Below are positions 23,281 to 27,498 of a stretch of 32,675 bases of DNA, piece by piece. Source of the stretch: Clostridiales bacterium. Lineage in GTDB: Bacteria; Bacillota; Clostridia; Saccharofermentanales; Saccharofermentanaceae. Location of the stretch: contig JAFWSW010000090.1 of the NCBI GenBank assembly GCA_017519205.1, positions 1 to 32,675 on the forward strand, given 5' to 3'. The translations under genes were made by a program, and so were the position numbers. Under the pieces are notes generated by a model, which searched no databases, was not told the DNA's origin, and was given only the letters and a program-made list of their open reading frames with translations. Every line of letters begins with the position of its first letter. The stretch's first letter is position 1.

Positions 23281-23290
23281 ACATTATAAT
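23262..23290 (+). promoter_or_regulatory. Promoter of the cobalamin-uptake operon
   Basis: TATAAT (23285-23290) lies 17 bases after TTGCGG (23262-23267), the latter inside the end of the lipoprotein gene, and just ahead of the riboswitch. Confidence 0.65.
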
Positions 23291-23299
23291 ATGCTGTGG

Positions 23300-23505
23300 C
23301 CGTCGGTGCCTTGTAACAGAGGAGAATAGGGAATGCGGTGAAAATCCGCAGCAGCCCCCACTACTGTAACCCGGTACGAAGTCCAGAAAAAAGTCATTGG
23401 CCAGGTGCTTTTGCCAAAGAAGCGGAAACGCGGGAGGGGGGGAAGCCGGAGGCTGAGAAGGCGAAGGACAGAGGGAAAACGGGTAAGTCAGGAGACCTGC
23501 CGGCG
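23300..23505 (+). promoter_or_regulatory. Cobalamin (B12) riboswitch
   Basis: The region carries the conserved blocks of the cobalamin riboswitch in order: CGGTGCC (about 23304), GAGAATAGGGAATGCGGTG (23322-23340), the B12-box-like GCAGCAGCCCCCACTACTGT (23348-23367), then a peripheral section and the closing GTCAGGAGACCTGCC (about 23487-23501). It lies directly upstream of a substrate-binding protein and its ABC transporter, which supports cobalamin as the substrate. A T-rich stretch follows at 23508-23520, and the final control could be termination or translation. Confidence 0.93.
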
Positions 23506-23563
23506 AGTTTTATTGTTTTTAGTTCTTTTCGGGGATGGGAAAAGGACGGAAATGGAGCAAACC

Positions 23564-27336: not shown

Positions 27337-27366
27337 TTGACGTAGGGCGGGTGAAGATGGTATTAT
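27337..27366 (+). promoter_or_regulatory. Promoter of tRNA-Cys
   Basis: TTGACG (27337-27342), an 18-base spacer and TATTAT (27361-27366) with a TG extended -10 (27358-27359), 22 bases before the tRNA. An AGTGCTTTT copy lies upstream at 27307-27315. Confidence 0.75.
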
Positions 27367-27388: not shown

Positions 27389-27462
27389 GGCGCCATAGCC
27401 AAGTGGTAAGGCAGAGGTCTACAAAACCTTTATCCCCGGTTCAAATCCGGGTGGTGCCTCCA
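27389..27462 (+). tRNA. tRNA-Cys-like gene with ACA anticodon
   Basis: The 74-base gene folds as a full cloverleaf: acceptor GGCGCCA with TGGTGCC, D arm, anticodon stem GAGGT/ACCTT, T arm and encoded CCA (27460-27462). The body and the U73 discriminator are those of clostridial tRNA-Cys, but the loop CTACAAA gives anticodon ACA (27421-27423) where GCA is expected. It would read UGU. It has its own promoter and terminator. Loss of G34, a cysteinyl-tRNA synthetase identity base, may impair charging. Confidence 0.9.
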
Positions 27463-27468
27463 AATGAG

Positions 27469-27498
27469 AAGGAGTTATCGGAAGATGACTCCTTTTTT
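27469..27498 (+). terminator. Intrinsic terminator of tRNA-Cys
   Basis: AAGGAGTTATC (27469-27479) pairs with GATGACTCCTT (27484-27494) around GGAA, followed by TTTT. Confidence 0.92.

What the first reader, a model, noticed from the sequence alone, without database searches (positions are those of the whole stretch)
27389..27462. tRNA-Cys body with an ACA anticodon
Seen: all arms pair, CCA is encoded, U73 is present and promoter and terminator flank it, yet the anticodon is ACA instead of GCA. Known: bacteria read UGU/UGC with a single GCA tRNA, G34 is an identity base for cysteinyl-tRNA synthetase, and A34-to-inosine editing by TadA is normally confined to tRNA-Arg(ACG). Inference: this is an extra UGU-reading tRNA, a new TadA substrate (inosine could also reach UGA), a non-canonical regulatory tRNA, or an assembly error. 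UGC codons are common in this window, so a GCA copy should exist elsewhere.
Basis: partly seen in the sequence, partly recalled or inferred. Interest (0 to 1): 0.7.

Follow-up and report, generated by a model that had tools for sequence, protein, structure and literature searches.

The report
Cysteine tRNA with one odd base
The only cysteine tRNA gene found in this draft genome differs from its counterparts in 21 related species at the first anticodon base (A instead of G), a change that should cripple cysteine decoding and is therefore most likely a single-base assembly error or a very recent strain variant, not a new decoding system.

Summary
In detail: 27389-27462 is a complete tRNA-Cys (U73, encoded CCA, promoter and hairpin conserved in congeners) with anticodon ACA; the odd base is A27421. 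It is the only tRNA-Cys found in the draft genome (240 contigs, 89.9% complete). The orthologue in 21 congeners carries GCA; most differ from this gene only at this base. No other A34 was found among 99 further genomes of the phylum that match the pattern, nor in 5,373 E. coli tRNA-Cys genes. TGC is the main Cys codon (91 TGC, 43 TGT in the window), and usage matches congeners at aligned cysteines. Published E. coli work (PMC11066159) found that an ACA tRNA reads UGU, not detectably UGC, and is not edited to inosine. A cell relying on this gene alone should therefore decode cysteine poorly. The likeliest reading is a wrong or minority base in the consensus; a real recent mutation, with or without a hidden GCA copy, is not excluded. 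One coincidence keeps it open: this is the only one of 23 congeneric genomes without the standard CysRS (absent between cysE and mrnC), leaving a second-type CysRS, though its anticodon-contact residues look ordinary. Read support at 27421 would decide.

The parts
27337..27366 (+). sigma-70-like promoter TTGACG-18-TATTAT of the tRNA gene
   Evidence: consensus scan; closely similar hexamers in 7 congeners
27389..27462 (+). tRNA-Cys gene, 74 nt including encoded CCA, anticodon ACA
   Evidence: ARAGORN, Rfam 64.8 bits, 73/74 identity to most congeners' tRNA-Cys(GCA)
27421..27423 (+). anticodon ACA; 27421 is position 34, which is G in every congener and in the 99 other genomes of the phylum compared
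27466..27497 (+). terminator-like hairpin with T-run, conserved in congeners
   Evidence: RNA fold -18.7 kcal/mol, z -5.0; alignment

Best explanation
This is the ordinary, orthologous tRNA-Cys gene of the organism, apparently single-copy. The A at position 34 is most likely not the base in most cells: it is a wrong consensus base (sequencing or assembly error) or a minority-strain base in a fragmented draft assembly, over a true GCA anticodon. Shown: the gene, its orthology, and the invariance of G34 in relatives. Inferred: that the A is an error, since no reads were available.
For: All 21 congeners in which position 34 could be read have GCA, and most differ from this gene only at this base. 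In an even sample of the phylum, every other copy matching the pattern, in 99 genomes, has G34. None of 5,373 E. coli genomes holds an exact match to an A34 version of its tRNA-Cys. A scan of 84,980 genomes gave only two other genuine tRNA-Cys(ACA) genes of similar body. It is the sole tRNA-Cys found. TGC is used about twice as often as TGT (91:43), and at aligned cysteines usage is 64% TGC here versus 65% in congeners. Published: an ACA tRNA reads UGU but not detectably UGC in E. coli and is not inosine-modified (PMC11066159); G34 is a major identity base for CysRS (PMC9976931; PMC12684709).
Against: No reads were seen. The contig otherwise looks clean: 33 genes without an internal stop. The same genome alone lacks the canonical cysS of the genus, an independent oddity in cysteine translation; if the base were random error, landing in that one of 23 genomes has about a 4% chance (counted after the fact). 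An isolate, Scopulibacillus daqui DSM 28236, also shows a tRNA-Cys(ACA) and no other tRNA-Cys was found there, so the base may be tolerated in some setting. The published decoding test used a foreign tRNA body competing with native G34 tRNA.
Confidence: 0.6

Rival explanations
1. A real, very recent G34A mutation in the only tRNA-Cys gene, tolerated because unmodified A34 reads UGU well and UGC weakly; the cell charges it with the second-type CysRS after loss of the canonical enzyme.
For: Sole tRNA-Cys found. Canonical cysS absent between cysE and mrnC, leaving one second-type CysRS. In B. subtilis unmodified A34 in tRNA-Arg(ACG) still reads all four CGN codons (PMC10454642).
Against: No UGC-to-UGU shift. 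ACA does not detectably read UGC in E. coli (PMC11066159). The residues aligned to the E. coli G34 contacts are of the same kinds in the canonical and second-type enzymes (R, K, F or Y, D), and congeners with both enzymes keep GCA.
Confidence: 0.18
2. The A is real, but a second tRNA-Cys(GCA) lies in the roughly 10% of the genome missing from the assembly, so this copy was free to mutate and now reads UGU at most.
For: Assembly is 89.9% complete; the tadA region falls in a contig break, so essential genes are missing.
Against: Congeners, several 94-99% complete, each show one tRNA-Cys by blastn (one is split over a contig break), and this copy sits at the conserved locus with promoter and hairpin intact.
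Confidence: 0.13
3. Position 34 is edited A to I by TadA, making a three-way reader of UGU, UGC and UGA.
For: Only the resemblance of the ACA loop to the TadA substrate ACG; two tRNA-Arg(ACG) genes are present, which implies a TadA.
Against: ACA was not inosine-modified in E. coli (PMC11066159). By wobble rules I34 would also read UGA, which ends 13 of the 33 window genes counted.
Confidence: 0.03

Closest known systems
Single-copy bacterial tRNA-Cys(GCA)
   Same: Body, U73, encoded CCA, locus, promoter and hairpin; 73 of 74 bases in most congeners
   Different: A instead of G at position 34
tRNA-Cys(ACA) genes in Scopulibacillus daqui (L098), an Acidobacteriaceae MAG (L099) and a viral contig (L100)
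   Same: tRNA-Cys with ACA anticodon
   Different: Different bodies and contexts; L098 is on an 8.3 kb contig with plasmid-like genes, L100 lies in a viral tRNA array; not orthologous loci
Bacterial tRNA-Arg(ACG), the classical TadA substrate
   Same: A34 and C35
   Different: Four-codon box, different loop and identity; an ACA anticodon was tested elsewhere and not edited

Membership tests
tRNA-Cys | cloverleaf with U73 and CCA end | tested here: met
tRNA-Cys | orthology with the tRNA-Cys of related species | tested here: met
   73/74 identity and synteny
tRNA-Cys | GCA anticodon (G34 identity base) | tested here: not met
   A27421 in the assembly as given
tRNA-Cys | charging by CysRS | not testable with these tools
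   needs an aminoacylation assay
TadA substrate tRNA | A34 converted to inosine | not testable with these tools
   needs tRNA sequencing; published negative for an ACA anticodon in E. coli (PMC11066159)
TadA substrate tRNA | tadA in the genome | tested here: inconclusive
   no TadA hit in G000, but homology stops at the very end of contig C220, in the addA-like gene next to tadA

The most novel reading that the evidence does not exclude
A living bacterium that decodes all its cysteine codons with a single unmodified A34 tRNA-Cys, after its standard CysRS was replaced by a second-type enzyme.
Probability: 0.1. Interest if true: 0.7.

Novelty: not a real feature. Interest (0 to 1): 0.2.

Why it matters
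If the A were real and the gene the only tRNA-Cys, it would break the rule that two-codon boxes ending in U or C are read by G34 tRNAs and would test how far an unmodified A34 can read C-ending codons in nature. More likely it is a caution that one wrong base in a draft genome can mimic a new decoding rule.

Tried and rejected
Second tRNA-Cys in the genome: none among 43 tRNA hits; the truncated hit at C118 carries a CCA anticodon (tRNA-Trp). Absence of TadA as an explanation: withdrawn, because the homologous contig ends just before tadA. CysRS adapted to A34: the residues aligned with E. coli R423, R427, W432 and D436 are R, K, Y, D in this genome's enzyme and R, K, F, D in the congeners' enzymes of both types that were read. 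Codon-usage adaptation: none. GenBank phages and plasmids: only partial-identity matches, best 94.6%. A literature search for tRNA errors in MAGs returned nothing. One genome-contig hit (L097, Leucobacter) is not a tRNA by ARAGORN.

Full report
What is there. ARAGORN and Rfam both call a complete tRNA at 27389-27462, a tRNA-Cys with anticodon ACA. A TTGACG-18-TATTAT promoter-like site ends 22 bases upstream of the gene, and a 14-pair hairpin with a T-run follows it. The RNA folds with acceptor, D, anticodon and T arms.

Only tRNA-Cys found. The genome (G000, 2.52 Mb in 240 contigs, 89.9% complete) gives 43 tRNA hits. I read the anticodon of all of them; only this one is a tRNA-Cys. One truncated hit that ARAGORN did not call has a CCA anticodon and is tRNA-Trp.

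Orthologues. In 21 congeners in which position 34 can be read the gene has GCA, and in most of them this is the only difference in 74 bases. No match was found in G003 (79% complete). The upstream transglutaminase-like gene, the promoter hexamers and the hairpin are shared in the seven congeners aligned. In a sample of 398 genomes from the phylum, 100 match the pattern with any base at position 34; this genome alone has A, and every copy in the other 99 has G. Searching 5,426 complete E. coli genomes with an A34 form of the E. coli tRNA-Cys (written from memory) gave 5,373 genomes, all in the 95-99% identity band and none exact. The rows printed show 98.6%, that is one mismatch.

How rare is A34 elsewhere. 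A scan of 84,980 species genomes for a similar body with ACA gave three hits, two of which are tRNA-Cys: one in Scopulibacillus daqui DSM 28236 and one in an Acidobacteriaceae MAG. A viral scan added one contig. The S. daqui gene sits on an 8.3 kb contig with plasmid-like genes (weak RepL and MerR-type hits). No GCA gene was found in that genome, but only 150 of 201 tRNA candidates were scored there, so absence is not proved.

Would it work. TGC is the main Cys codon: 91 against 43 TGT in 33 window genes. At cysteines aligned with congeners, usage is 185 TGC / 104 TGT here against 189 / 100 (the same own codon is counted once per relative), so codon usage has not moved. Schmitt and others (PMC11066159) tested an ACA anticodon on an orthogonal tRNA in E. 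coli: it read UGU (3.6%), UGC was below detection, and no inosine was seen. G34 is a major CysRS identity base (PMC9976931; PMC12684709). Against this, unmodified ACG reads all CGN codons in B. subtilis (PMC10454642), so poor reading of C-ending codons by A34 is not universal. A strain living on this gene alone should be badly impaired; hence an error or minority base is the best reading. This last step is inference.

An oddity that keeps the question open. In congeners the canonical cysS lies before mrnC and rlmB (after cysE in G004). Here cysE is followed directly by mrnC on one contig. The only CysRS found is a second type (439 bits against 559-579 for the canonical form) that some congeners carry in addition to the canonical one. 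In the search of 23 genomes, only this one has no canonical match; in G003, G011 and G019 the matches that are not second-type are in pieces, and I assigned them to the canonical gene by score and position without checking each. The canonical gene could still lie in the missing 10% here. Nothing in the second-type enzyme's anticodon-contact residues suggests A34 use, and congeners holding it keep GCA. I treat the coincidence as weak evidence for a real change.

TadA. No TadA hit was found here, but homology to the addA-tadA-rpoD region stops at base 3136 of contig C220, which is that contig's last base. This is an assembly gap, not evidence of a loss.

Verdict. Observation confirmed; the decoding novelty is probably not real. 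Without reads the base cannot be settled.

Noticed in passing
L264:3522-3950 (G000 contig C20) and L123 (G000 contig C55:6773-8173): The canonical cysS is absent between cysE and mrnC; the only CysRS found is a second type, also present in some congeners beside the canonical enzyme.
   Followed up: partly
L098:1501-2198 (Scopulibacillus daqui): A tRNA-Cys(ACA) lies directly upstream of an ORF with a cysteine-rich C-terminal part whose eight Cys codons are all TGT; no Pfam family and no relative in the plasmid collection.
   Followed up: partly
23287-23518: Cobalamin riboswitch (108 bits) upstream of a lipoprotein-like substrate-binding protein and a permease/ATPase pair (gene names judged from the translations).
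   Followed up: no
1424-2830: ORF with collagen-like Gly-X-Y repeats behind an N-terminal hydrophobic segment.
   Followed up: no
L137:6435-6506 and L140:2132-2203: Viral tRNA arrays hold tRNAs that ARAGORN reads with a four-base anticodon (tcgt).
   Followed up: no
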